Of a DNA stretch of 64,000 bases, positions 6,848 to 53,761 are shown one piece after another. The stretch covers positions 1,984,001 to 2,048,000 of the forward strand of contig NZ_AP019841.1 of NCBI RefSeq assembly GCF_007990445.1, given 5' to 3'. The notes below the pieces were generated by a model. The model worked only from the letters and a program-made list of their open reading frames with translations, had not been told where the DNA came from and did not search any database. Within the stretch, counting starts at the first letter, position 1, and each line of letters begins with the position of its first letter. The translations under genes and the position numbers were made by a program. Source of the DNA: Leptotrichia wadei (GTDB taxonomy: Bacteria > Fusobacteriota > Fusobacteriia > Fusobacteriales > Leptotrichiaceae).

Positions 6848-7087
6848 ATGAAAAAATTAATATTAGGAATATTTTTATTATTTAGCGTTCTTAGTTTCTC
6901 AAGATACGTAGAACGTTGCAAAATAGTGTCAGATAATACTTGCGTAAGTTTAAAATCAGGAAAAAGATTTAATTTTAGCGGCCATCCTTTTGCATCAGCT
7001 GCATATGGAAGCGTTTACAGAGTATATTTTGAAGGAAATGGATATAAAAACCTGTACTTCACAGGAAATGAATATCTCTACAATTAA
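6848..7087 (+). CDS. Small secreted protein, unknown
   Basis: 79 residues with a clear signal peptide (MKKLILGIFLLFSVLSFS) and a GAGGAG ribosome binding site. The mature part of about 60 residues has two cysteines (in ERCKIVSDNTC) that could form a disulfide, plus aromatic/Gly-rich segments. No family recognised. The gene stands alone, about 200 bases after the acetyltransferase gene and 160 before the amidase gene. Confidence 0.7.
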   Translation: MKKLILGIFLLFSVLSFSRYVERCKIVSDNTCVSLKSGKRFNFSGHPFASAAYGSVYRVYFEGNGYKNLYFTGNEYLYN

Positions 7088-39420: not shown

Positions 39421-40542
39421 TTATTTCATCTCATACATAACCGATATATTCTGTGTCAATTTTAACGGTTTTGGAGTATAATCAACCCTAGATTTGCCAG
39501 CTCGCATTGACATAGGTGCAGGCATTGCCACTTCCTTAGCCTCAAGTCTATTAAGTCCTAGTGTTGGTCCATCATAAGCCACACTCCAGTCCTGATCAAT
39601 CCTGTCAATCATCTTTTGCTGAAATTCCACATCTTCACTTACAATAATAGGTTCTCCCAGCTTCATCTTGCTCGAACGTAAGATGCTTTCTGCTTTCTGC
39701 TTTGTCTGATTATAAGCATCTTTATACATTTCTGACTCAATTCTGTCTTTATCTGACAAGTCAAAATTAATTGAACCGTTTATGTTTATTCCGTTGTCAT
39801 CGGCAATTGAAATTATTGTATTAAGTTCCTTTATATTTTTTGTTGTAAGTACAAATTCATCTGTAACATAGTAAACATCTTTTTTTGTACCTTTATTTTC
39901 TGTATAATTTTCCTTTATTTCATAATCACTCAAAATAATATCATTTTCAGGGATTCCGGCTGAAACTAGCTTTCTTCTGGAAGTATTAAGTTTGTTAAAC
40001 ACTTTATTTAAAGCCTGGTCAACTGTTGTTCCATTTTCATTTATATTAAATGCAAATGTATTTTCATCAAAATTTTTCTGAATACTTTGTAAATTATCTC
40101 CATCTTCCAAGTCAATTAATGCTGAAATCTTGTTAAAATCTGTATTTTTCACAAGCATCTCCATTTTCACATCATAAGAAGTTGGCTTTTTCTCAGCTTT
40201 TTTCACATTCTTGCCTGGAACTGTCTTTACATCCAAAATATCCTCATCATCTTCATATTCCGTCCCTTTTCTATTATAAAATGCTGTTGTTTCCAGATTT
40301 TCCAGTGATATTCTTCTAGCTTTCAAATCATTCTTAAATTTCTCAACTTTTTTATTTACCTCATTTGTTGCCTGATTTAAGTTTTTCCCCTTCACTTCAA
40401 CTTTAAAATTAATTTTTGCTAAATCTGGCATAATTTCCCTTTCTGCATTACCCGTAACACTAATTTTTCTCACAAGATTTTCATTCGCTCCAAATGAAAA
40501 TACACTTAACAGAGAAAATAGCGCAATTGCTACTTTTTTCAT
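39421..40542 (-). CDS. SIMPL-domain (DUF541) exported protein, paralogue
   Basis: About 373 residues from the ATG at 40542, which has GGAGGGA directly upstream; a reading from 40554 would place that site inside the coding region. Signal peptide MKKVAIALFSLLSVFSFG, then SIMPL core: ISVTGNAEREIMPDLAKINFKVEVKGKNLNQA and MYKDAYNQTKQKAESIL. It differs from its neighbour by a charged insert near residues 105-125 (DDEDILDVKTVPGKN) and a tail containing MPAPMSMRAGKS. The tandem pair probably arose by duplication. Confidence 0.85.
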   Translation of the reverse strand: MKKVAIALFSLLSVFSFGANENLVRKISVTGNAEREIMPDLAKINFKVEVKGKNLNQATNEVNKKVEKFKNDLKARRISLENLETTAFYNRKGTEYEDDEDILDVKTVPGKNVKKAEKKPTSYDVKMEMLVKNTDFNKISALIDLEDGDNLQSIQKNFDENTFAFNINENGTTVDQALNKVFNKLNTSRRKLVSAGIPENDIILSDYEIKENYTENKGTKKDVYYVTDEFVLTTKNIKELNTIISIADDNGININGSINFDLSDKDRIESEMYKDAYNQTKQKAESILRSSKMKLGEPIIVSEDVEFQQKMIDRIDQDWSVAYDGPTLGLNRLEAKEVAMPAPMSMRAGKSRVDYTPKPLKLTQNISVMYEMK

Positions 40543-40744
40543 TTTTCCCTCCATAATTTCACTTGATTATTTATTTTCCAAATTTTTATTTTCTAAATTA
40601 AGTATAACACGATAAAATTAAAAGTAAATGAGAAATTTTATTTTTATTTTAAGATTTTTTATAAAAAATAATATATATCATTTTTTCAATATTTATGGTA
40701 TTATATAAAATAAAGAATTATAAATAAAAATAACGAGGTGAAAA

Positions 40745-46545: not shown

Positions 46546-46971
46546 TCATTTATTTAATTTATCGTATCTTTTTGCCAATTGCAATGCTCTGTCTTTTGTT
46601 ATTGATAATCTATCACTAGCGGCAAGTTCCCCAGCCATTCTTGGTCCTTCTTCTGCCTCATATTTATCGTACGCCTTCTGAACTTTAGTTTCTCTATCCT
46701 TTTTCCATTTTTGCTGTTCAGCTTTAAATTTTACTTTTTCCTTTGCTGGCAGTTTTTTTAGAATCAAATCATAGACTTTATTCATTTCTTTTTCCCATTC
46801 AGTATCCAAATCTAGTGAAGCATTTATCATATCAGCTCTTACTCCACTATCCCATCCAGCCTGTGCTTTTTCTTCTAAAGTTTTCATTCTTTTTGTCAAT
46901 TCATTTTCATATTTCCCTGCAAATGCAACAGCTCCTAAAAGTAATAATCCTGCTATTAATAATTTTCTCAT
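46546..46971 (-). CDS. LprI-like exported protein (DUF1311 type)
   Basis: 141 residues with signal peptide MRKLLIAGLLLLGAVAFA. The mature helical part carries the LprI/DUF1311 pattern: DLDTEWEKEMNKVYDLILKKLPAKEKVKFKAEQQKWKKDRE, then ALQLAKRYDKLN. In mycobacteria LprI inhibits lysozyme; here the family match is moderate and the usual cysteines are absent. A lipoprotein paralogue is encoded at 49281-49802. GGAGTTGATA precedes the ATG. Confidence 0.7.
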   Translation of the reverse strand: MRKLLIAGLLLLGAVAFAGKYENELTKRMKTLEEKAQAGWDSGVRADMINASLDLDTEWEKEMNKVYDLILKKLPAKEKVKFKAEQQKWKKDRETKVQKAYDKYEAEEGPRMAGELAASDRLSITKDRALQLAKRYDKLNK

Positions 46972-47056
46972 TTTTTATCAACTCCTATTTTTTGTATTTT
47001 GCATTAAATCACAAACCTCTTTTTTAATCAACTTAATTTTCAACAAAATTCAGATA

Positions 47057-47398
47057 TTAATTATATCCTGTTGGACAATAATCCTTTAATATATATGGAA
47101 AAATTATATTCCCGTCCTTATCAATTTCAACCATTGTTTGAAGTTTTGTATCAAAAGTAAATCTTCTGTCATCTCCAGTATCTTTAGTTCCATATTCAAC
47201 GGTAAATCCATTTTTTGCTACAGTTATAGGTTCGTCCCATCCGCCGTCATCCTCGCCACGTAAATACCACTTTTCATTTTTTTTAAATATTTCAAGACCT
47301 TGATATTTTCCTGCTGCTTTTTCCAAATTATGTTTTCCATCTGTAGTAACTTTTATCGCAAATGCTGGTATCACAGCTAACGCCATAATTAAAAACAA
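47057..47398 (-). CDS. Small exported protein, unknown, with doubtful start
   Basis: 113 residues from a TTG at 47398. In frame upstream lie I-I-K-K-V (ATT ATT AAA AAA GTA), which would complete a standard signal peptide ending AVIPAFA. A GAGCAGG lies at the right distance for an ATT start near 47410-47413, as if ATG had mutated to ATT. The mature part (KVTTDGKHNLEKAAGKYQGLEIFKKNEKWYL...) is hydrophilic with Gly/Asp-rich loops. No family recognised. It is one of the run of leftward exported-protein genes. Confidence 0.6.
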   Translation of the reverse strand: MFLIMALAVIPAFAIKVTTDGKHNLEKAAGKYQGLEIFKKNEKWYLRGEDDGGWDEPITVAKNGFTVEYGTKDTGDDRRFTFDTKLQTMVEIDKDGNIIFPYILKDYCPTGYN

Positions 47399-47459
47399 TA
47401 CTTTTTTAATAATTATTACCTGCTCTTTCTGTTTAAATTTATCATTTCTTAATCACAAC

Positions 47460-47933
47460 TTATTTATACAGTTTATAATAATCACGGTATAATTTATACA
47501 TTTCAGGATTATCTTCAGGGAAATCTTTCAAATGTTCAGGATCATCAATTTTATCATGATTTTCTCGTACAATACTAATTATTCTTTTCGTTTTTCTATT
47601 CAAAATTACTGGATCTTTTAATTTTGTATCGTATCCAACACAGATATATTCATCACAAAGCACATTTTTTTCCTTAACTGCATTTGTAATTCGTGGCGAC
47701 TCATTTTCATCTCCAGTATCAGAAGCGTAATCCCAGAACTGATAATTCCCGTTTTTCAATTTTTTGATTTCTATTGAAGTATCATCTGCTGATATCTCTC
47801 TTTTCAGCAATATTTCCTCATGCAGTTTTCCATCGCTTGTGAAAGGCAAATCATAACCTTTGTAACTAAATTCTTCTTCTGAAAACCCAATGACTCCCAT
47901 CAATAGCAATAATGCCATAATAATTTTTTTCAT
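47460..47933 (-). CDS. Exported protein, paralogue of 49964-50311
   Basis: 157 residues; signal peptide MKKIIMALLLLMGVIGFS. Core: DGKLHEEILLKREISADDTSIEIKKLKNGNYQFWD and VLCDEYICVGYDTKLKDPVIL, shared with the 49964-50311 product, including the two cysteines of CDE-x-IC. A unique acidic C-terminal tail of about 40 residues follows (DDPEHLKDFPEDNPEMYK). No known family. GGAGGGAACG ribosome site. Confidence 0.7.
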   Translation of the reverse strand: MKKIIMALLLLMGVIGFSEEEFSYKGYDLPFTSDGKLHEEILLKREISADDTSIEIKKLKNGNYQFWDYASDTGDENESPRITNAVKEKNVLCDEYICVGYDTKLKDPVILNRKTKRIISIVRENHDKIDDPEHLKDFPEDNPEMYKLYRDYYKLYK

Positions 47934-48042
47934 TTTCGTTCCCTCCGCTTTCTATTTTTTCTTCTTTGTTTATTTTTTCACTAATAATATATCATAACTT
48001 TATTAAAGAAAAATGAGAGTTTTTATTTTACTTATTATTTTT

Positions 48043-49239
48043 CTAGTCTGCTTTTACTGTTTCATAAACTTTATTTTTATCTCTTATTTCATATACATCC
48101 TTTTCATGATTATATTTCATGCCAAAACTTTCATAATCAGCACCCGCTAAAATTTTACCTTTAAAATAAACATTTCTTCTTCCTTTTGCATATTCAGTAT
48201 CGCCATATGCACTAAACTGATGGCTTTCTGCTTTTTCAAGTTTTTTAAATGCACCTTCATCTGTATCTAAGTAATAAACTACATTATACTTATTTATATA
48301 TTTGTCATTATATGTCGATAAATTATATGGATCAACCTTAGGAGCATCTTTTATTTTTACAAGTTTATGATTTTTTACAAAATACATACTGTCCTTATCG
48401 TGATACAAGTTAGTTTTGATTGCTAACTGTGAAAGATTTTCAATATCCACTTCCTTACCGTCTATCGGAACTATACTTCCGTCTTTCTCAACAATGTAAA
48501 ATCCATTTTTATCTTCTATAAGAAAATTGTCAACTAATCTGCTTATTTTCTTAAATGTTTTTACATCTATACCTTTTAATTTCTTATTTTCATAATAGAC
48601 ATTGTTTTTATCTTTTGAATAATATCCATTTACTACAGATCCAAAATCATATGTTAATTCAAATGTGTTTTTATCTGCTCCTTCTATTTTTTTATTTCCA
48701 TAGTAAACATTATTTTTATCCTTTATATAAGGAAGTTCTATTATCTTAATAGTGTCTCTATCAACACCCAATATTTTCTTACCCCCAAAATAAATATTAT
48801 TTTTATCTTTTGAAAAACCATCACTTCCTATTTGGAATGTAGGTAAATCTGCTCCTATTATTTTTCTATTTGAATAATAAATATTGTTTTTATCTTTTGA
48901 ATACAATTGATTTATCACTTCATACGTCTGAGGATCATACGGTAATTTTTCCAGTACCAAATTATCACTATCTCCATCAATATTGTAAATTCCATTTTTA
49001 TCTTTTAGATATCGACGCGCACTCCCGCTAATATTTATAATTTGAAAAGTAATCGGATCTATTCCTTCTAATTTTTTCCACCCTCTATTTTCCCAGACAT
49101 AAACTCCATTTTTATCTTTTGCATATACAGCATCTATTTCCTGAAATGTTGCTTTATCTATTTTTGGATTACTTCCTGCATAACTTATATTTACTGATAA
49201 AATCATAATTACAAATATTTTAAAAACTTTATTTTTCAT
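48043..49239 (-). CDS. DKNYY-repeat exported protein
   Basis: 398 residues; signal peptide (IFVIMILSVNISYAG). The body consists of about nine repeats of the DKNYY type: YSKDKNNIYYSNRKIIGADLPTFQ-like units in which D-K-N-x-x-Y-Y is followed by a G-x-D-x-x-T-F turn. This matches the DKNYY family of surface or periplasmic repeat proteins of unknown function. It stands alone among other leftward exported-protein genes. GGAGAAAC precedes the ATG. Confidence 0.82.
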   Translation of the reverse strand: MKNKVFKIFVIMILSVNISYAGSNPKIDKATFQEIDAVYAKDKNGVYVWENRGWKKLEGIDPITFQIINISGSARRYLKDKNGIYNIDGDSDNLVLEKLPYDPQTYEVINQLYSKDKNNIYYSNRKIIGADLPTFQIGSDGFSKDKNNIYFGGKKILGVDRDTIKIIELPYIKDKNNVYYGNKKIEGADKNTFELTYDFGSVVNGYYSKDKNNVYYENKKLKGIDVKTFKKISRLVDNFLIEDKNGFYIVEKDGSIVPIDGKEVDIENLSQLAIKTNLYHDKDSMYFVKNHKLVKIKDAPKVDPYNLSTYNDKYINKYNVVYYLDTDEGAFKKLEKAESHQFSAYGDTEYAKGRRNVYFKGKILAGADYESFGMKYNHEKDVYEIRDKNKVYETVKAD

Positions 49240-49280
49240 AACTAATGTTTCTCCTTCATTATTTTTTTAATCTGTAAATA

Positions 49281-49802
49281 TTATTTATTATTTAATAAAT
49301 CATATCTTTTTGCCAATTCTAAAGTTCTTTTCTCTATTCCACTTGCCCAGGCATTTCCTCCTAGAGTTCCTGATATTGTTCCACCTTCTGACTCTTCAGT
49401 ACTTTTTTCAACATCTTCCTTAACTTTTTTTAACCATTCTTCCTGCTCTTTTTGCAATTTTGCCTTTTCATTTTCTGATAATTTTGATAATAACAATTCA
49501 TAAACCTTTTTCATTTCTGTTTCCCATGAATCTCCTAATTTTTGAATTGCATTATTCATGTCTGCTGTCACTCCAGAATCCAAAACTGGCTGAATTTCCT
49601 TTTTTACTGCTTCCATTCTTTCCAATATTTGAGTTTCATAACTGCTTTCTGATTTTATGCTGCTTGAAGAAACTGCCGTTGTTTTATTAACTTCTTGCTT
49701 TATTTCCGTTTCTTTCGTTTCCTTTTTTTCATCTTTTCCAGATTTTGAACATGCGACAACTCCCATTAATAGTACTGTTAATGTAAAAAATAGTTTTTTC
49801 AT
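49281..49802 (-). CDS. LprI-like lipoprotein
   Basis: 173 residues; lipoprotein signal with lipobox GVVAC (Cys about 18). A charged low-complexity linker (GKDEKKETKETEIK...) leads to an LprI/DUF1311-like domain: DSWETEMKKVYELLLSKLSENEKAKLQKEQEEWLKKVKED and RTLELAKRYDLLNNK. It is paralogous to 46546-46971, sharing the W-E-x-E-M-x-K-V-Y and ELAKRYD-LN motifs. Possible envelope lysozyme inhibitor by family analogy. Confidence 0.7.
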   Translation of the reverse strand: MKKLFFTLTVLLMGVVACSKSGKDEKKETKETEIKQEVNKTTAVSSSSIKSESSYETQILERMEAVKKEIQPVLDSGVTADMNNAIQKLGDSWETEMKKVYELLLSKLSENEKAKLQKEQEEWLKKVKEDVEKSTEESEGGTISGTLGGNAWASGIEKRTLELAKRYDLLNNK

Positions 49803-49963
49803 AAGTTTTTCTCCATTTTTTTATTATTCAATTTTTCATTAATTATTATATCGTAAATTTATTAAAGAAAAATGAGAGTCACAAACAACAACATCTATTG
49901 CTATACAATTATTTTTTTGTTCTTTTTTTGCCTATTTCTCTCTCCTTGTTAAATGTACGAATT

Positions 49964-50311
49964 TTACCATTCAGGATAAATAACTCTCATATCTTCAGGA
50001 TCTATGAATACTGCCTTTTTCAATTCCACATCATATCCAATGCAGATAGTTTCATCACAAATAGAATTTTTTTTCACTGTTGCTTTTTCAACAGATGCTT
50101 CACTGTCAGGCTCCTCAGAAGAACGTACGATTTCATACTCTCCATTTCCTGTTTTTCTTATTTCTAACTCTGTATCTTCCGAAACTATGCTTCTATTTAA
50201 CAATTTTTCTTCATGTAATTTCCCATCTGTATTAAATTTTAAATCAAGTCCTGCCGCTCCATAACTTATTGCTCCTATTAGCAGTATTGCCATTAATAGC
50301 ATTTTTTTCAT
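49964..50311 (-). CDS. Exported protein, paralogue of 47460-47933
   Basis: 115 residues; signal peptide MKKMLLMAILLIGAISYG. Shares FNTDGKLHEEKLLNRSIVSEDTELEIRKTGNGEYE and SICDETICIGYDVELKKAVF with the longer paralogue but lacks its acidic tail. Two conserved cysteines may form a disulfide. Function unknown. GGAAGATTTG before the ATG. Confidence 0.7.
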   Translation of the reverse strand: MKKMLLMAILLIGAISYGAAGLDLKFNTDGKLHEEKLLNRSIVSEDTELEIRKTGNGEYEIVRSSEEPDSEASVEKATVKKNSICDETICIGYDVELKKAVFIDPEDMRVIYPEW

Positions 50312-50636
50312 ACAAATCTTCCTCCCTGTTTATTTTATTAATATTATACCATATAATTTTTTAAAAAAAATACAATTATAACAATTTTAGTTTAAATGTC
50401 ATATTTTTATGATTTATTCATCAATCCTTGTATTCCTTGCCTTAAATTGTTTATCCATTTTTTAATTATTTAAATTTTAGCTGATTTTTGAAGTAACATA
50501 AATTGAAATGATTGATTTGTCTTGAATTTTTTGGCAAGGGGATTAGAATCCCCTTGTTAATAATAAAATTAATTTTAAATTTATAAATTTAAACTGCTGA
50601 ATTGATTTATTGCTATTTTTTGAATAAAAAACTGCA
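50312..50636. other. Intergenic stretch with palindrome and a possible gene scar
   Basis: Contains the hairpin CAAGGGG (50535-50541)/CCCCTTG (50550-50556), equal to the core of the palindrome at 41844-41863. A minus-strand run, WINNLRQGIQGLMNKS followed by a stop (near 50415-50460), could be the last codons of a lost gene. Confidence 0.4.
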
Positions 50637-50981
50637 TTACTTGACTAAAAGACAAGAAGTATTTCTTCCATTTTGTTTAAGCGTCATGTGATTTCCCTTT
50701 ATATGGATTTTGACATTTTCATCGCTATATTTTTCTCCATTTGAAGATTCAACCCTATTCAACTGCCATTTTTTATATGTTTTCATATCCAAAAGCTGAA
50801 CTGTTTCATCTGTAATATAATTTACAGTATATATTTTTTTTTTGCAGTTAAATTTTTTAAATACAACTTCCCTGCGTTTATCATTTATAACAGGATTTTT
50901 TCTTTTAACAGCTCCATTTAAAACACATCCTATTAATAATATCCCAAATAACATTATTGTTAATTTTTTTGATATTTTCAT
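50637..50981 (-). CDS. MliC-like lysozyme-inhibitor lipoprotein
   Basis: 114 residues; lipoprotein signal with lipobox LLIGC (Cys about 19). The mature part fits the MliC/PliC pattern: a first Cys (FNCKKKIYTVNY), then QLNRVESSNGEKYSDENVKIHIKGNHMTLKQNGRNTSC. In this the S-x-G-x-K-Y-S loop, the K-G-N block and the terminal Cys correspond to the C-type lysozyme inhibitor fold. Predicted to be tethered to a membrane and protect peptidoglycan from host lysozyme. Match judged by eye. Confidence 0.65.
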   Translation of the reverse strand: MKISKKLTIMLFGILLIGCVLNGAVKRKNPVINDKRREVVFKKFNCKKKIYTVNYITDETVQLLDMKTYKKWQLNRVESSNGEKYSDENVKIHIKGNHMTLKQNGRNTSCLLVK

Positions 50982-51026
50982 AAAAATTCCCGCTTTCCCT
51001 TTTTTATTTTCAATAAAGTTAAAACA

Positions 51027-51674
51027 TTAAACATTATGAACTCTTACTCCATATCTGAAATATTTTCTCCAGTATGGACTCTTTAACGATGACATTACAA
51101 CTCCTTTTGAAGATGAAGCATTAATAAAAAGTGTGTTACCAACATAAACTGCTGTATGATTTGTTCTATTTCCAGGCTTAAAGAAAACAATATCTCCCGA
51201 TCTCAAGTTTTTGGCTGAGACTCTTGTCCCTTGCTTTACTTGCTGTGTTGAAACTCTTGGAAGCTCCTTATTGAAAACTTCACGATAGACTCTACGTGTC
51301 AATGCTGAACAATCTATACCCTTTCTAGAATCTCCTCCTAATACATATCTTGTCCCACGCCACTTGCTATAGGAAGTTAAAAGTTTTTTTTCTACAGCCG
51401 CTCTTTTTCTTTCTTGAGTTGATCCCGAAGTCATCGCCTTTCTATGTCTTTGTCTTAATTCTGCCATTTTTGTCTCAACAAGATCACTTTTATTTTTCGC
51501 AGAAACTCCATAAATTCCGCTATTTCCACTACTATGAGCTTTTTTTACGTTTAAAGGCTTATGAGAAGTTTTAGATTTTACAGTTTTTTTCCCCTTCGAT
51601 GTTTTTGCATGAAGATTTGTTCCTACAAAAGTTGATAACATACATATCGCAGTCAAAAATTTATTTTTTTTCAT
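51027..51674 (-). CDS. NlpC/P60-family cell-wall peptidase
   Basis: 215 residues; signal peptide about 1-23, a basic linker, then one NlpC/P60 domain (about 100-215). Catalytic Cys122 is in GIDCSALTRRVY and His173 in RTNHTAVYVGN. The third polar position (His in Spr/NlpC) is Asn185 in LFINASSSKGV. RVSTQQVKQG and LRSGDIVFF are family hallmarks. It cleaves peptide stems of peptidoglycan (gamma-D-Glu-diaminoacid type). Start 51674 after GAAAGGAAT. Confidence 0.9.
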   Translation of the reverse strand: MKKNKFLTAICMLSTFVGTNLHAKTSKGKKTVKSKTSHKPLNVKKAHSSGNSGIYGVSAKNKSDLVETKMAELRQRHRKAMTSGSTQERKRAAVEKKLLTSYSKWRGTRYVLGGDSRKGIDCSALTRRVYREVFNKELPRVSTQQVKQGTRVSAKNLRSGDIVFFKPGNRTNHTAVYVGNTLFINASSSKGVVMSSLKSPYWRKYFRYGVRVHNV

Positions 51675-51739
51675 ATATTTTTTATTCCTTTCAAAATTAG
51701 TTTTTATAATATTTTTATCACATTAATTTTATCATTTTA

Positions 51740-51843
51740 GTGAATTACTCCAGCATTCACATTTATAACTTTTCTTCAATGTTTTATACAAAAATTGTAT
51801 CATAGATATATACTTTTTTCAATTTTTTTACAAAAAAAGTACA
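51740..51843. repeat. Internally deleted IS605-type relic
   Basis: GTGAATTACTCC (right-end boundary, as at 26450 and 1243) is followed after about 25 bases by the tnpB promoter block: ATACAAAAATTGTAT, TTTTTTCAATTTTTTTACAA and AAAAAAG (compare 27746-27800). The whole tnpB gene is missing between them. Confidence 0.6.
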
Positions 51844-51945
51844 CTAAACAAATTTAAAAATTACATTAATTAACTTACTAGACTATAAAAAGGGAGTCAA
51901 AACTCCCCTTATTAAATAAATTTGCCTAACTATAATTCAAAATTT

Positions 51946-52731
51946 TTATTTATTAACTTTTTCAAATGTCAAAGTTTTTCCCTTATCTGTTGTCAAAATC
52001 AAAGTTTTTTGATCAGATAACTTAACTTTTTTAGAATTTCCTAAAAGTTCCAAAAATTCCCTTTCAACTTTCATAAGATTTTCAGGGCCTGCCATTCTTG
52101 TTGAACCAAGAGGACCAATTTTAATATTATTATCAGTTATTTCACAATTTCCAAAATAATTGTTTATTCCTGAATTTCCATTTATTCTGTTTTCACTAAA
52201 TGAAATGGTAATACCCTCTTCGCTTTCTGAAATTAATTTGCTGACATCTTTTCCATCCATGTTCAAAAGTTTCCAGCTTGTATCTTGCAACTGTTTATTC
52301 AATGTCAAGACTTTAAAAGTCCAGATTTCCTTTTTATTCTTGCTCAAAGTTAAAGTGCTGGCATTATAGCTGATTTTTGGAGAAGATTGTAAAATATCAA
52401 AGAAATTTTGTTCAATGCTCATTAATTCTTCTGGACCTGCCATCAAAGTTGTAGCCACGCCAGCTGATAAAGTCGAGTTATTTTTAATTTTATAATTTCC
52501 AAAATAATTATTTATCCCAGAAAATCCATTAATTTTGTCGCCTGAAAAATTAATTGTAACTTTACCACCCTTCGGAATTTCAACATTTTTTCCATTTCGA
52601 TTAATTTGCACCAATTCCCACGAAGTTTCATTTAAGTTATAGATTTTTTTTCTTTTAGAATATGCACTTAAAACAAAGCAATTTAACAAAAAGACTGTAA
52701 AAATTCCAATTAAAATAGACATTTTTTTCAT
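51946..52731 (-). CDS. Tandem META-domain (HslJ-like) exported protein
   Basis: 261 residues; N-terminal signal sequence with the cysteine in LLNCFVLSA. Two META/DUF306 domains follow: ETSWELVQINRNG...INGFSGINNYFGNYKI...TTLMAGPEELM, then DTSWKLLNMDGKDV...INGNSGINNYFGNCEI...STRMAGPENLM. The conserved G-x-N-x-Y-x-G and T-R/L-M-A-G-P motifs appear in each. HslJ-type META proteins are outer-membrane or periplasmic and linked to stress or novobiocin resistance. The duplication is internal and fairly recent. Confidence 0.85.
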   Translation of the reverse strand: MKKMSILIGIFTVFLLNCFVLSAYSKRKKIYNLNETSWELVQINRNGKNVEIPKGGKVTINFSGDKINGFSGINNYFGNYKIKNNSTLSAGVATTLMAGPEELMSIEQNFFDILQSSPKISYNASTLTLSKNKKEIWTFKVLTLNKQLQDTSWKLLNMDGKDVSKLISESEEGITISFSENRINGNSGINNYFGNCEITDNNIKIGPLGSTRMAGPENLMKVEREFLELLGNSKKVKLSDQKTLILTTDKGKTLTFEKVNK

Positions 52732-52843
52732 TTTAAATACCTCTTTCCTAATTTTTCTTAATTTTATTTCCTTCTTAACTAAAGAATAACATATATTTGT
52801 TAAAGAAAAATGAGAAAACGGAAATCTTTACTTTTTATTTTTT

Positions 52844-53566
52844 CTACCAAGCTGAATTTATTAAAACTTCTTCTCCATATCCACCATTCATTTTTTGAGG
52901 ATTTGTAGAATTGTAAGCTCTTTGAACTCTTATTCCACGAATTCCTAATTCTCTTGCAGCTAAAATATCATCGTCGCTGTCACCATAGTGGATTGAAACA
53001 TTATGTTTTTTCATGTAAAATGATTTGTCATATTTGTACCCACCTGTCGGAGTATCAGCTGTGTATTCTACATAAACTTCTTCTGGTAAATCAAAGTATC
53101 TTTGCAATGTTTTTGATAATTTTGTTGAAGTATAGTTTTTATCTTTTGAATGTTTTGTTCTTCCTGTAATAAAAAATATGTGATCTCCTCTTTCCAAATG
53201 CATTTTAATTAAATCTTTTGCAGATTGTTTTGGAATTGAGTGTTCATCTCCGTTTTCAGCAACATAATCCCAAAATTTTTGATTATACAAATAACTTGCA
53301 GCTCCTCTTTTATCTCCTGGAATTTGGAAATGATATTGCCCATAATTAAAATAACCGCTTGAATGCACCAATGTATCATCAATATCAAAACTTACATTAA
53401 TAGGGCCTTTCCCTTCTAAACTTTTCTTAATGTCATCAACAGATACAAAATGAACAGCCTTCTGAACTTTGTCTGTCGAATAAAATCCTTCGTGAGTATA
53501 AGGAACTTTTGGTCCTGCTGCAAATATTACAGATGCAGCAAATAAAAATAATAATGCCTTTTTCAT
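52844..53566 (-). CDS. aphA: Class B acid phosphatase
   Basis: 240 residues with a signal peptide ending IFAAG. HAD-type core: FDIDDTLVHSSGYF (nucleophile Asp61, acid/base Asp63), FFITGRTKHS, a lysine in YKYDKSFYMKK and IHYGDSDDDILAA. GYFNYGQYHF and WDYVAENGDEHSIPK are typical of AphA. Periplasmic non-specific phosphomonoesterase that releases phosphate from nucleotides and sugar phosphates. AGGAGGAAATG precedes the ATG. Confidence 0.92.
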   Translation of the reverse strand: MKKALLFLFAASVIFAAGPKVPYTHEGFYSTDKVQKAVHFVSVDDIKKSLEGKGPINVSFDIDDTLVHSSGYFNYGQYHFQIPGDKRGAASYLYNQKFWDYVAENGDEHSIPKQSAKDLIKMHLERGDHIFFITGRTKHSKDKNYTSTKLSKTLQRYFDLPEEVYVEYTADTPTGGYKYDKSFYMKKHNVSIHYGDSDDDILAARELGIRGIRVQRAYNSTNPQKMNGGYGEEVLINSAW

Positions 53567-53602
53567 AACATTTCCTCCTATATATTTTTTTTATTTTTTT
53601 TA

Positions 53603-53761
53603 TTATCTTATAGGTTCACAGCCTATAAATTCTCCCTTTGCCGTATAAGTACACAAATTTCCCGCTTTTTCTCTTCCATCACCTTTAGGAATCTTGAAAT
53701 AAGAGCAGCTAGATGATAATACTGCTAAAACTAATGTTAGAAGCATTGTTACCTTTTTCAT
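53603..53761 (-). CDS. Small lipoprotein
   Basis: About 52 residues from the ATG at 53761, which has GAGGAGGA upstream. Signal MKKVTMLLTLVLAVLSSSC with lipobox Cys, then a short mature part containing two more cysteines (NLCTYTAKGEFIGCEPIR). Unknown function; leftward, between aphA and gapN. Confidence 0.65.
   Translation of the reverse strand: MKKVTMLLTLVLAVLSSSCSYFKIPKGDGREKAGNLCTYTAKGEFIGCEPIR

What the first reader, a model, noticed from the sequence alone, without database searches (positions are those of the whole stretch)
46546..53761. Envelope-protection island with several candidate lysozyme inhibitors
Two LprI-like proteins, one MliC-like lipoprotein, a tandem META protein, an NlpC/P60 peptidase, DKNYY and other small exported proteins occupy 7 kb, all leftward and each with its own ribosome site. 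LprI and MliC families inhibit lysozyme in other bacteria. For an oral or genital mucosal organism constantly exposed to lysozyme, this clustering is meaningful.
Basis: partly seen in the sequence, partly recalled or inferred. Interest (0 to 1): 0.55.

Follow-up and report, generated by a model that had tools for sequence, protein, structure and literature searches.

The report
Two-component envelope-protein regulon in Leptotrichia
A run of small exported-protein genes in an oral bacterium, first read as a shield against our lysozyme, looks like part of a wider set of cell-envelope genes that share one unusual promoter and are probably switched on together by a sensor system, which brings a testable stress response into view in a little-studied genus.

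Summary
In detail: eleven leftward genes for small exported proteins fill 46546-53761, including two PF07007 (LprI) proteins, a borderline MliC-like lipoprotein, double META, NlpC/P60 and DKNYY. The lysozyme reading is only partly supported: the LprI copies lack the family's cysteines, and the MliC copy has lost a serine needed for inhibition, while intact MliC domains lie elsewhere in the genome. What unites the genes is a promoter box, TCTCAT-N5-TTTAAT, 10 nt before an extended -10. It precedes an LprI gene, the META gene and a gene of an unnamed family ("K"). In 13 Leptotrichia genomes a 30-base pattern of it occurs 55 times, in 10 genomes (reversed control 0); 51 sites precede K, META, PepSY, LprI, DUF4153 or one lipoprotein family. 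In all 10, one site lies inside a regulator-kinase-PepSY-PepSY locus; the 3 genomes without the pattern lack that kinase's orthologue, but form one clade. Best reading: a PepSY-linked, OmpR-family two-component system drives an envelope regulon whose LprI-fold members restrain peptidoglycan-cutting enzymes. A plasmid in this genome carries another boxed LprI. Binding, signal and enzyme targets are untested.

The parts
46546..46971 (-). LprI-like exported protein p1, no cysteines
   Evidence: PF07007 41.6 bits; 41% identical to p5
47057..47410 (-). p2, shortened copy of a ~215-aa two-repeat exported protein; ATT where relatives have ATG
47460..47933 (-). p3, K family (no Pfam family over its cut-off), exported, conserved Cys pair
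   Evidence: AF2 model of low to middling confidence
48002..48019 (-). promoter box CTCTCATTTTTCTTTAAT before p3
   Evidence: extended -10 TATATT at 47991-47986
48043..49239 (-). p4, DKNYY-repeat exported protein
   Evidence: PF13644 155.7 bits
49281..49802 (-). p5, LprI-like lipoprotein, no cysteine after the lipobox
   Evidence: PF07007 45.1 bits; four-helix model resembling DUF1311 3gi7 and the T6SS self-protection entry 4noo
49861..49878 (-). promoter box CTCTCATTTTTCTTTAAT before p5
   Evidence: -10 TATAAT at 49850-49845
49964..50311 (-). p6, K family, exported
   Evidence: 41% identical to p3
50637..50981 (-). p7, MliC-like lipoprotein; Asn at the S89-equivalent, Lys kept at the K103-equivalent
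51027..51674 (-). p8, NlpC/P60 peptidase
   Evidence: 97.3 bits
51946..52731 (-). p9, double META domain
   Evidence: 158.2 bits
52799..52816 (-). promoter box TTCTCATTTTTCTTTAAC before p9
   Evidence: -10 TATTCT at 52788-52783
52844..53566 (-). p10, AphA-type acid phosphatase; no box
   Evidence: TIGR01672 265.8 bits
53604..53761 (-). p11, 52-aa lipoprotein; no box
40617..40634 (-). weaker box TTCTCATTTACTTTTAAT before the SIMPL-domain exported protein 39421-40554; both hexamers and the 10-nt gap to the -10 kept; hexamers also kept in G007 and G012

Best explanation
The stretch joins two gene sets for small exported proteins: set A (K - LprI - DKNYY - K - p2 - LprI) and set B (META - NlpC/P60 - MliC). 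Both contain promoters with a shared box, TCTCAT-N5-TTTAAT, ending 10 nt before an extended -10. The box is most likely bound by the OmpR-family response regulator of a regulator - kinase - PepSY - PepSY locus elsewhere in the genome, whose own PepSY genes carry the same box. Proposed working: a disturbance of the envelope, perhaps relayed by the PepSY proteins to the kinase, activates the regulator; it binds over the -35 region and recruits RNA polymerase; the cell then exports LprI-fold, K, META, PepSY and other proteins. LprI-fold proteins most likely bind and restrain peptidoglycan-cutting enzymes (own, a rival's or the host's). Shown by sequence: gene sets, box, its targets in the genus and the link to the locus. 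Inferred: binding, activation, signal and the enzymes inhibited.
For: Box with <=1 mismatch: 30 sites in 10 of 13 Leptotrichia genomes, reversed control 0 in 13; for all 30 a start codon of an ORF that looks exported or membrane-bound by eye lies 53-99 bases on from the first base of the site. Longer pattern with <=3 mismatches: 55 sites, control 0: PepSY 12, K 11, META 11, LprI 6, DUF4153 6, one lipoprotein family 5, other 4. Variation in 54 distinct contexts: hexamer 1 0/324 cells, spacer 24/270, hexamer 2 5/324. In 10 of 10 box-bearing genomes a box lies between the kinase gene and two PepSY genes of the same locus. Kinase orthologue (84-100%) in exactly those 10; in the 3 genomes without the pattern nothing above 50% at E<=1e-60. 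LprI model: the top five second-look entries are DUF1311 3gi7, an uncharacterized Burkholderia protein and three effector-immunity entries. PepSY-linked two-component modules are reported across phyla including Fusobacteria, and DbfQRS answers outer-membrane stress (PMC12714742, passages).
Against: The three genomes without kinase and box fall in one clade of a META tree (100/100), so the co-absence counts as one event. Two of them (G006, G010), and G022 of another genus, keep a diverged box before META without a kinase above 52%, so another regulator may read it. The two hexamers agree in only 4 of 6 positions, and periods of 7 and 9 give hexamer pairs just as alike. No expression or binding data exist here. 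8 of 11 island genes have no box of their own and would need read-through or other promoters. An ECF sigma factor is not excluded: weak matches below the cut-off exist in 6 further genomes besides the 4 above it. LprI model Z 10-12 is below the ~13 at which helical bundles become convincing.
Confidence: 0.6

Rival explanations
1. Host-lysozyme shield: LprI and MliC proteins exported here directly inhibit salivary lysozyme.
For: PF07007 hits; MliC relationship; a genus relative is named an oral-taxon strain; further MliC domains in this genome keep both inhibitory residues.
Against: No cysteines after the lipobox in the LprI copies; Ser lost in the island MliC; ScwA, an LprI protein, has no lysozyme phenotype (PMC7933661, passages); several regulon partners have no lysozyme link that I know of.
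Confidence: 0.2
2. Immunity bank: the LprI proteins are stand-alone immunity proteins against muramidase effectors or bacteriocins of rival oral bacteria, multiplied and spread by plasmids.
For: The LprI model resembles the effector-immunity entries 4noo/4nso/4nsr at Z 10.4-10.9; DUF1311/LprI proteins are reported next to T6SS effectors (PMC12135965, passages); paralogues in tandem, and one on a plasmid.
Against: By eye no effector gene beside the copies in this genome, though not every neighbour was searched; the box is shared with META, DUF4153 and PepSY genes.
Confidence: 0.2
3. The box is real, but is read by a different regulator; the PepSY locus is one more target.
For: Diverged box without the kinase orthologue in G006, G010 and G022; paralogous kinases at 35-57% identity exist; weak sigma-domain matches.
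Against: The box is inside the locus in 10 of 10 genomes, and pattern and orthologue are both missing in 3 of 3; the Sigma70_r4_2 domain passes its cut-off in only 1 of the 10 box-bearing genomes.
Confidence: 0.25
4. A chance neighbourhood: unrelated small exported-protein genes that piled up in one lineage, with promoters copied along.
For: Set A sits beside an FtsH gene in 7 of 10 genomes and beside set B only in 3.
Against: p1, p3 and p5 stay together in 10 of 10 genomes and NlpC-MliC are adjacent in 11 of 13; the same box precedes non-homologous genes while flanking sequence differs.
Confidence: 0.12

Closest known systems
DbfQRS-like PepSY-linked two-component modules (V. cholerae DbfQRS, P. 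aeruginosa BqsRS)
   Same: OmpR-family regulator, kinase and small exported PepSY proteins in one locus; such modules are reported in Fusobacteria too (PMC12714742, passages)
   Different: Here two PepSY genes lie downstream of the kinase behind a box that is shared with LprI, K and META genes; the P. aeruginosa operator is TTAAG-N6-TTAAG (PMC4682146, passages)
LprI / DUF1311 (PF07007), incl. M. tuberculosis LprI and Salmonella ScwA
   Same: HMM score over the cut-off, exported, helical model like 3gi7
   Different: No cysteines after the lipobox; no fused MliC domain; paralogues beside K genes
T6SS self-protection protein of V. cholerae (4noo; also 4nso, 4nsr; the name TsiV3 is recalled)
   Same: Helical core, Z 10.4-10.9 over 90-95 residues
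   Different: 13-14% identity; no effector partner seen
MliC/PliC (PF09864)
   Same: Profile match, Cys pair, Lys of the inhibitory pair
   Different: Key Ser replaced by Asn in the window copy
PhoP-type operators
   Same: Hexamer-N5-hexamer layout (PMC2681069, passages)
   Different: Hexamers imperfectly alike (4 of 6)

Membership tests
PF07007 LprI | Curated HMM score | tested here: met
   41.6 and 45.1 bits vs 22
PF07007 LprI | Conserved cysteines | tested here: not met
   Both island copies and 27 of 28 LprI-like ORFs of the ten set-A regions have no Cys beyond residue 35; the exception is one Cys in an apparently frame-shifted tail in G009. Family statement from PMC7933661 (passages). So filed as LprI-like / LprI-fold only
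PF07007 LprI | Helical fold of DUF1311 | tested here: inconclusive
   3gi7 Z 10.8, 2.0 A over 91 residues; 6ar7 Z 12.4; under the ~13 advised for helical bundles
PF07007 LprI | Lysozyme inhibition | not testable with these tools
   Needs purified protein
PF09864 MliC | Curated HMM score | tested here: inconclusive
   Window copy 21.5 vs 22; 10 of 11 aligned members match at E<=0.01
PF09864 MliC | Ser of SxSG (PaMliC S89) | tested here: not met
   SSNG in the window copy; equivalence inferred from the 14-residue Ser-Lys spacing on 3f6z and PMC6033465
PF09864 MliC | Lys (PaMliC K103) | tested here: met
   IHIKGN
DbfQRS-like module | PepSY gene within four genes of a kinase or regulator | tested here: met
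   10 of 10 box-bearing Leptotrichia genomes, two PepSY genes each
DbfQRS-like module | PepSY protein acts on the kinase | not testable with these tools
   Needs genetics or binding assays
OmpR-family operator | Two conserved hexamers, 5-bp spacer | tested here: met
   0/324 and 5/324 mismatch cells in the hexamers vs 24/270 in the spacer
OmpR-family operator | Hexamers are direct repeats | tested here: inconclusive
   4 of 6 identical; other periods as good
K family vs known folds | Relationship to a solved fold (lipocalin-like, NlpE, PliC) | tested here: inconclusive
   No Foldseek hit at E<=0.001; best Z 6.6 in the second look; model pLDDT 68.5

The most novel reading that the evidence does not exclude
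Leptotrichia runs its envelope-stress response through a PepSY-sensing two-component system whose output is an undescribed arsenal of periplasmic peptidoglycan-hydrolase inhibitors: cysteine-free LprI proteins and the K family, which act as a pair. Plasmids pick up single boxed members, so protection spreads already wired to the host's sensor.
Probability: 0.25. Interest if true: 0.75.

Novelty: new variant of a known kind. Interest (0 to 1): 0.55.

Why it matters
Leptotrichia is an oral genus whose signalling is little studied: none of the six papers found with Leptotrichia, two-component system and response regulator has Leptotrichia in its title (search listing only), and no held paper has both Leptotrichia and LprI; the library lacks most subscription journals. 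The box gives a ready reporter and a named candidate sensor for an envelope response. It turns a list of unexplained small exported proteins (K, LprI-like, META, PepSY, DUF4153) into candidates for one response, and warns against reading LprI annotations as host-lysozyme inhibition.

Tried and rejected
An ECF sigma factor as reader of the box: Sigma70_r4_2 passes its cut-off in 4 of 13 genus genomes and in only one of the 10 with the box (G009); 6 more genomes have weaker matches at E<=0.001, so it is disfavoured, not excluded. An 11-bp direct repeat as proof of an OmpR-type site: symmetry alone does not show it; the variation pattern does better. Looser box searches are noisier: at <=2 mismatches the 19-mer has 6 sites in this genome and the reversed control 1; at <=3 mismatches in the window 3 sites are found where 6 of 100 shuffles give 3 or more, though the 3 found are exact. 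K family by sequence against solved structures: nothing better than E 0.046; by model: no clear fold. LprI p5 and MliC p7 by single sequence against solved structures: nothing useful. Genome-contig scan with K: 3 loci in 2 named Leptotrichia only, as the peptide patterns were strict. Plasmid search with the plasmid LprI: one distant hit in Fusobacterium vincentii, no annotation. The small exported protein at 6848-7087 resembles a boxed one in G004, but no box was found before it. Of the 55 sites, 4 were not given to a target family: G001 1706478 (next ORF at +605), G007 2052322 (no ORF of 55 aa found within 900 bases), G004 490602 (90-aa exported protein, DKNYY gene further on) and G009 387931 (253-aa exported protein at +340). 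In one search, 54 distinct contexts were used; loci L173-L175 and L180 and sites near locus ends were left out. The META tree has 12 of the 13 genus genomes (G002 left out) plus G022 and G019, and may mix paralogues. An earlier count said 12 K sites of 30; the right number is 11. T6SS genes in this genome were not searched for.
Full report
What is there. Between 46546 and 53761 lie eleven leftward ORFs; a crude rule gives 10 of them a signal sequence, and p2 shows one if read from its ATT. Pfam and NCBIfam name LprI (two), DKNYY, NlpC/P60, META (two domains), AphA acid phosphatase, and MliC just under its cut-off. p3 and p6 are 41% identical, have no Pfam family over its cut-off and are called K here; p2 is a weaker relative. 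p1 and p5 are 41% identical paralogues.

Two gene sets, not one island. In 10 of 13 genus genomes LprI and K genes lie together; the other three have only weaker K-like and separate LprI matches. p1-, p3- and p5-type genes are present in all 10 regions, DKNYY in 8, p6 in 8 and p2-type genes in 9. In 7 of the 10 this set A sits beside an FtsH gene, in 6 of these 7 with a PtsI gene on the other side; G004 has another gene there (names tested on the G002 copies). Only in the window's genome, G007 and G012 does it stand beside META-NlpC-MliC and AphA. G007 has in addition a short LprI-K-LprI copy (L120) next to what looks by eye like the end of an FtsH gene. NlpC and MliC are neighbours in 11 of 13 genomes, and META lies within the fetched flank in 9 of 13. 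K is not confined to the genus as the tool draws it: a K-like stretch (34% over 102 residues) lies near META in G022. The window's p2 is a shortened copy: the ~215-aa relatives have two repeats and an ATG start, while this one lacks an internal stretch and begins with ATT.

The lysozyme question. The LprI copies pass the curated score. Of 28 LprI-like ORFs in the ten regions, 27, both island copies among them, have no cysteine beyond the lipobox region; the one exception is in an apparently frame-shifted tail. A paper on the Salmonella LprI-domain protein ScwA states that Pfam members have conserved cysteines, finds no effect of ScwA on lysozyme sensitivity and links it to the level of the lytic transglycosylase MltD (PMC7933661, passages only). 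For MliC, PMC6033465 (passages) gives S89 and K103 of the P. aeruginosa protein as residues that interact with lysozyme, and shows that a double change of their counterparts ends inhibition by SliC. Placing the window copy on 3f6z and on its relatives puts Asn at the Ser site and Lys at the Lys site; G012 is the same and G007 has Gly and Glu. Eight of the 11 aligned copies keep Ser. The same genome has a tandem MliC protein (58.1 bits) and a single one (40.3 bits), and by eye all three of their domains keep Ser and Lys. So the island's copy is the least likely inhibitor of the set.

The shared box. The stretch before p3, p5 and META holds the same 19-mer, CTCATTTTTCTTTAAYAAA. In the whole genome four sites come within one mismatch: these three and one on contig C4; at two mismatches there are six, with one for the reversed control. 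In 13 genus genomes there are 30 sites within one mismatch, in 10 genomes, and none for the reversed pattern. For each of the 30 an ORF starts 53-99 bases on from the first base of the site: K 11, META 7, LprI 4, DUF4153 4, and a 458-475-aa lipoprotein family 4 (the DUF4153 name and the lack of a Pfam match were each tested on one copy). The logo (31 sites, one of them at two mismatches) shows that conservation runs beyond the pattern used, to a TG-N-TAT extended -10 and a T before the box. A longer pattern with up to three mismatches gives 55 sites in the same 10 genomes, control 0, with targets PepSY 12, K 11, META 11, LprI 6, DUF4153 6, the lipoprotein family 5 and other 4. These counts include orthologues and so are not independent. 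In the window's own genome the 7 sites precede K, two LprI, META, two PepSY genes and the lipoprotein; a weaker eighth, with both hexamers intact, precedes a SIMPL-domain exported protein at 39421-40554. Eight of the eleven island genes have no box of their own.

Layout. Over 54 distinct contexts the left hexamer TCTCAT never varies (0 of 324 cells), the 5-bp spacer varies in 24 of 270, the right hexamer TTTAAT in 5 of 324, and the three bases after it in 58 of 162. The box ends 10 nt before the -10. Hexamer-N5-hexamer is the layout given for PhoP (PMC2681069, passages; that PhoP belongs to the OmpR family is recalled). The hexamers themselves are only 4 of 6 alike, so a direct repeat is not proven.

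The probable regulator. One site in this genome lies between a kinase gene and a PepSY gene. The locus is response regulator (Response_reg and Trans_reg_C), kinase (HAMP, HisKA, HATPase_c), box, PepSY, PepSY. In all 10 genomes with the box the same order is found, with regulators 89-97% and kinases 84-96% identical to the window genome's in the other nine and both PepSY genes present. In G006, G008 and G010, the three genomes with no match to either pattern, no kinase above 50% identity was found at E<=1e-60. A META tree puts these three, with G022, in one clade at 100/100, so this counts as a single co-loss or co-gain. G006, G010 and G022 carry a diverged form of the box before META, TCTAAT and TTTAAT with 5-6 bp between them, which may be read by a related regulator; none was seen in G008. 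Modules of PepSY, kinase and regulator are described across phyla including Fusobacteria, and DbfQ of V. cholerae acts on its kinase; the system responds to outer-membrane stress (PMC12714742, passages). F. nucleatum's sigma-E answers oxygen rather than lysozyme, though an antimicrobial conjugate also induced it (PMC11005410 and PMC12153356, passages). In Leptotrichia a matching sigma domain passes its cut-off in 4 of 13 genomes, only one of them with the box; six more have weaker matches.

What the proteins may do. The LprI model (pLDDT 75.6; residues 1-51 mostly below 50) is a helical bundle; the best second-look entries are 6ar7 (Z 12.4), three effector-immunity entries (4noo, 4nso, 4nsr; Z 10.4-10.9) and DUF1311 3gi7 (Z 10.8), before other rows at 9.0 and below. 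That is suggestive only for a helical bundle. LprI-domain proteins have been implicated in toxin antagonism and T6SS immunity (PMC12135965, passages), and that the V. cholerae effector in question cuts peptidoglycan is recalled. This is why I commit to restraint of peptidoglycan-cutting enzymes, as an inference. The K model is a small beta-meander with weak resemblance (best Z 6.6) to barrel domains, among them NlpE and PliC; no claim is made.

Mobility. Contig C4 (8.15 kb) has Mob_Pre, Rep_OBD and integrase genes and an LprI lipoprotein with the box and no cysteine after its lipobox; a third of it matches a L. wadei plasmid. Its promoter stretch is nearly identical to that of the K gene p6 in G001, so promoter and gene look recombined.

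Verdict. This is most likely an envelope-protein regulon with a candidate sensor, a new variant of PepSY-linked two-component control, in which a host-lysozyme role is one of several options.

Noticed in passing
L178 (G000:C4), 1314-1778 minus, box at 1841-1812: A plasmid-like contig of this genome (Mob_Pre, Rep_OBD, integrase) carries a boxed LprI lipoprotein; its promoter stretch is nearly identical to that of a chromosomal K gene in G001.
   Followed up: partly
window 52844-53566: The AphA protein is 99% identical to that of G022, which the tool places in another genus, but 87-94% to those of G008, G017 and G019: possible recent transfer.
   Followed up: no
L078 and L079 (G000:C1 853-861 kb and 1331-1343 kb): DKNYY repeats are heavily expanded: 38 matches in the genome, with long arrays at two other places.
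   Followed up: no
window 39421-40554: SIMPL-domain exported protein with a weaker box; the box hexamers are kept in G007 and G012.
   Followed up: partly
window 6848-7087: Small exported protein 49% identical to a boxed one in G004 near a DKNYY gene, but without a box here.
   Followed up: partly
L176:1180-1842 and L177:1121-1486: Tandem and single MliC proteins with both inhibitory residues kept; better lysozyme-inhibitor candidates than the island's copy.
   Followed up: partly
L143 (G022): A K-like stretch (34% over 102 residues) lies within 1.5 kb of META in a genome the tool places in another genus.
   Followed up: no
L074:4622-5242: An LprI protein that does have cysteines, encoded upstream of a gene whose product looks like an Hsp70 by eye.
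   Followed up: no
NZ_CP084075.1: A 2.1-Mb Fusobacterium vincentii record filed as a plasmid, by size a chromosome.
   Followed up: no
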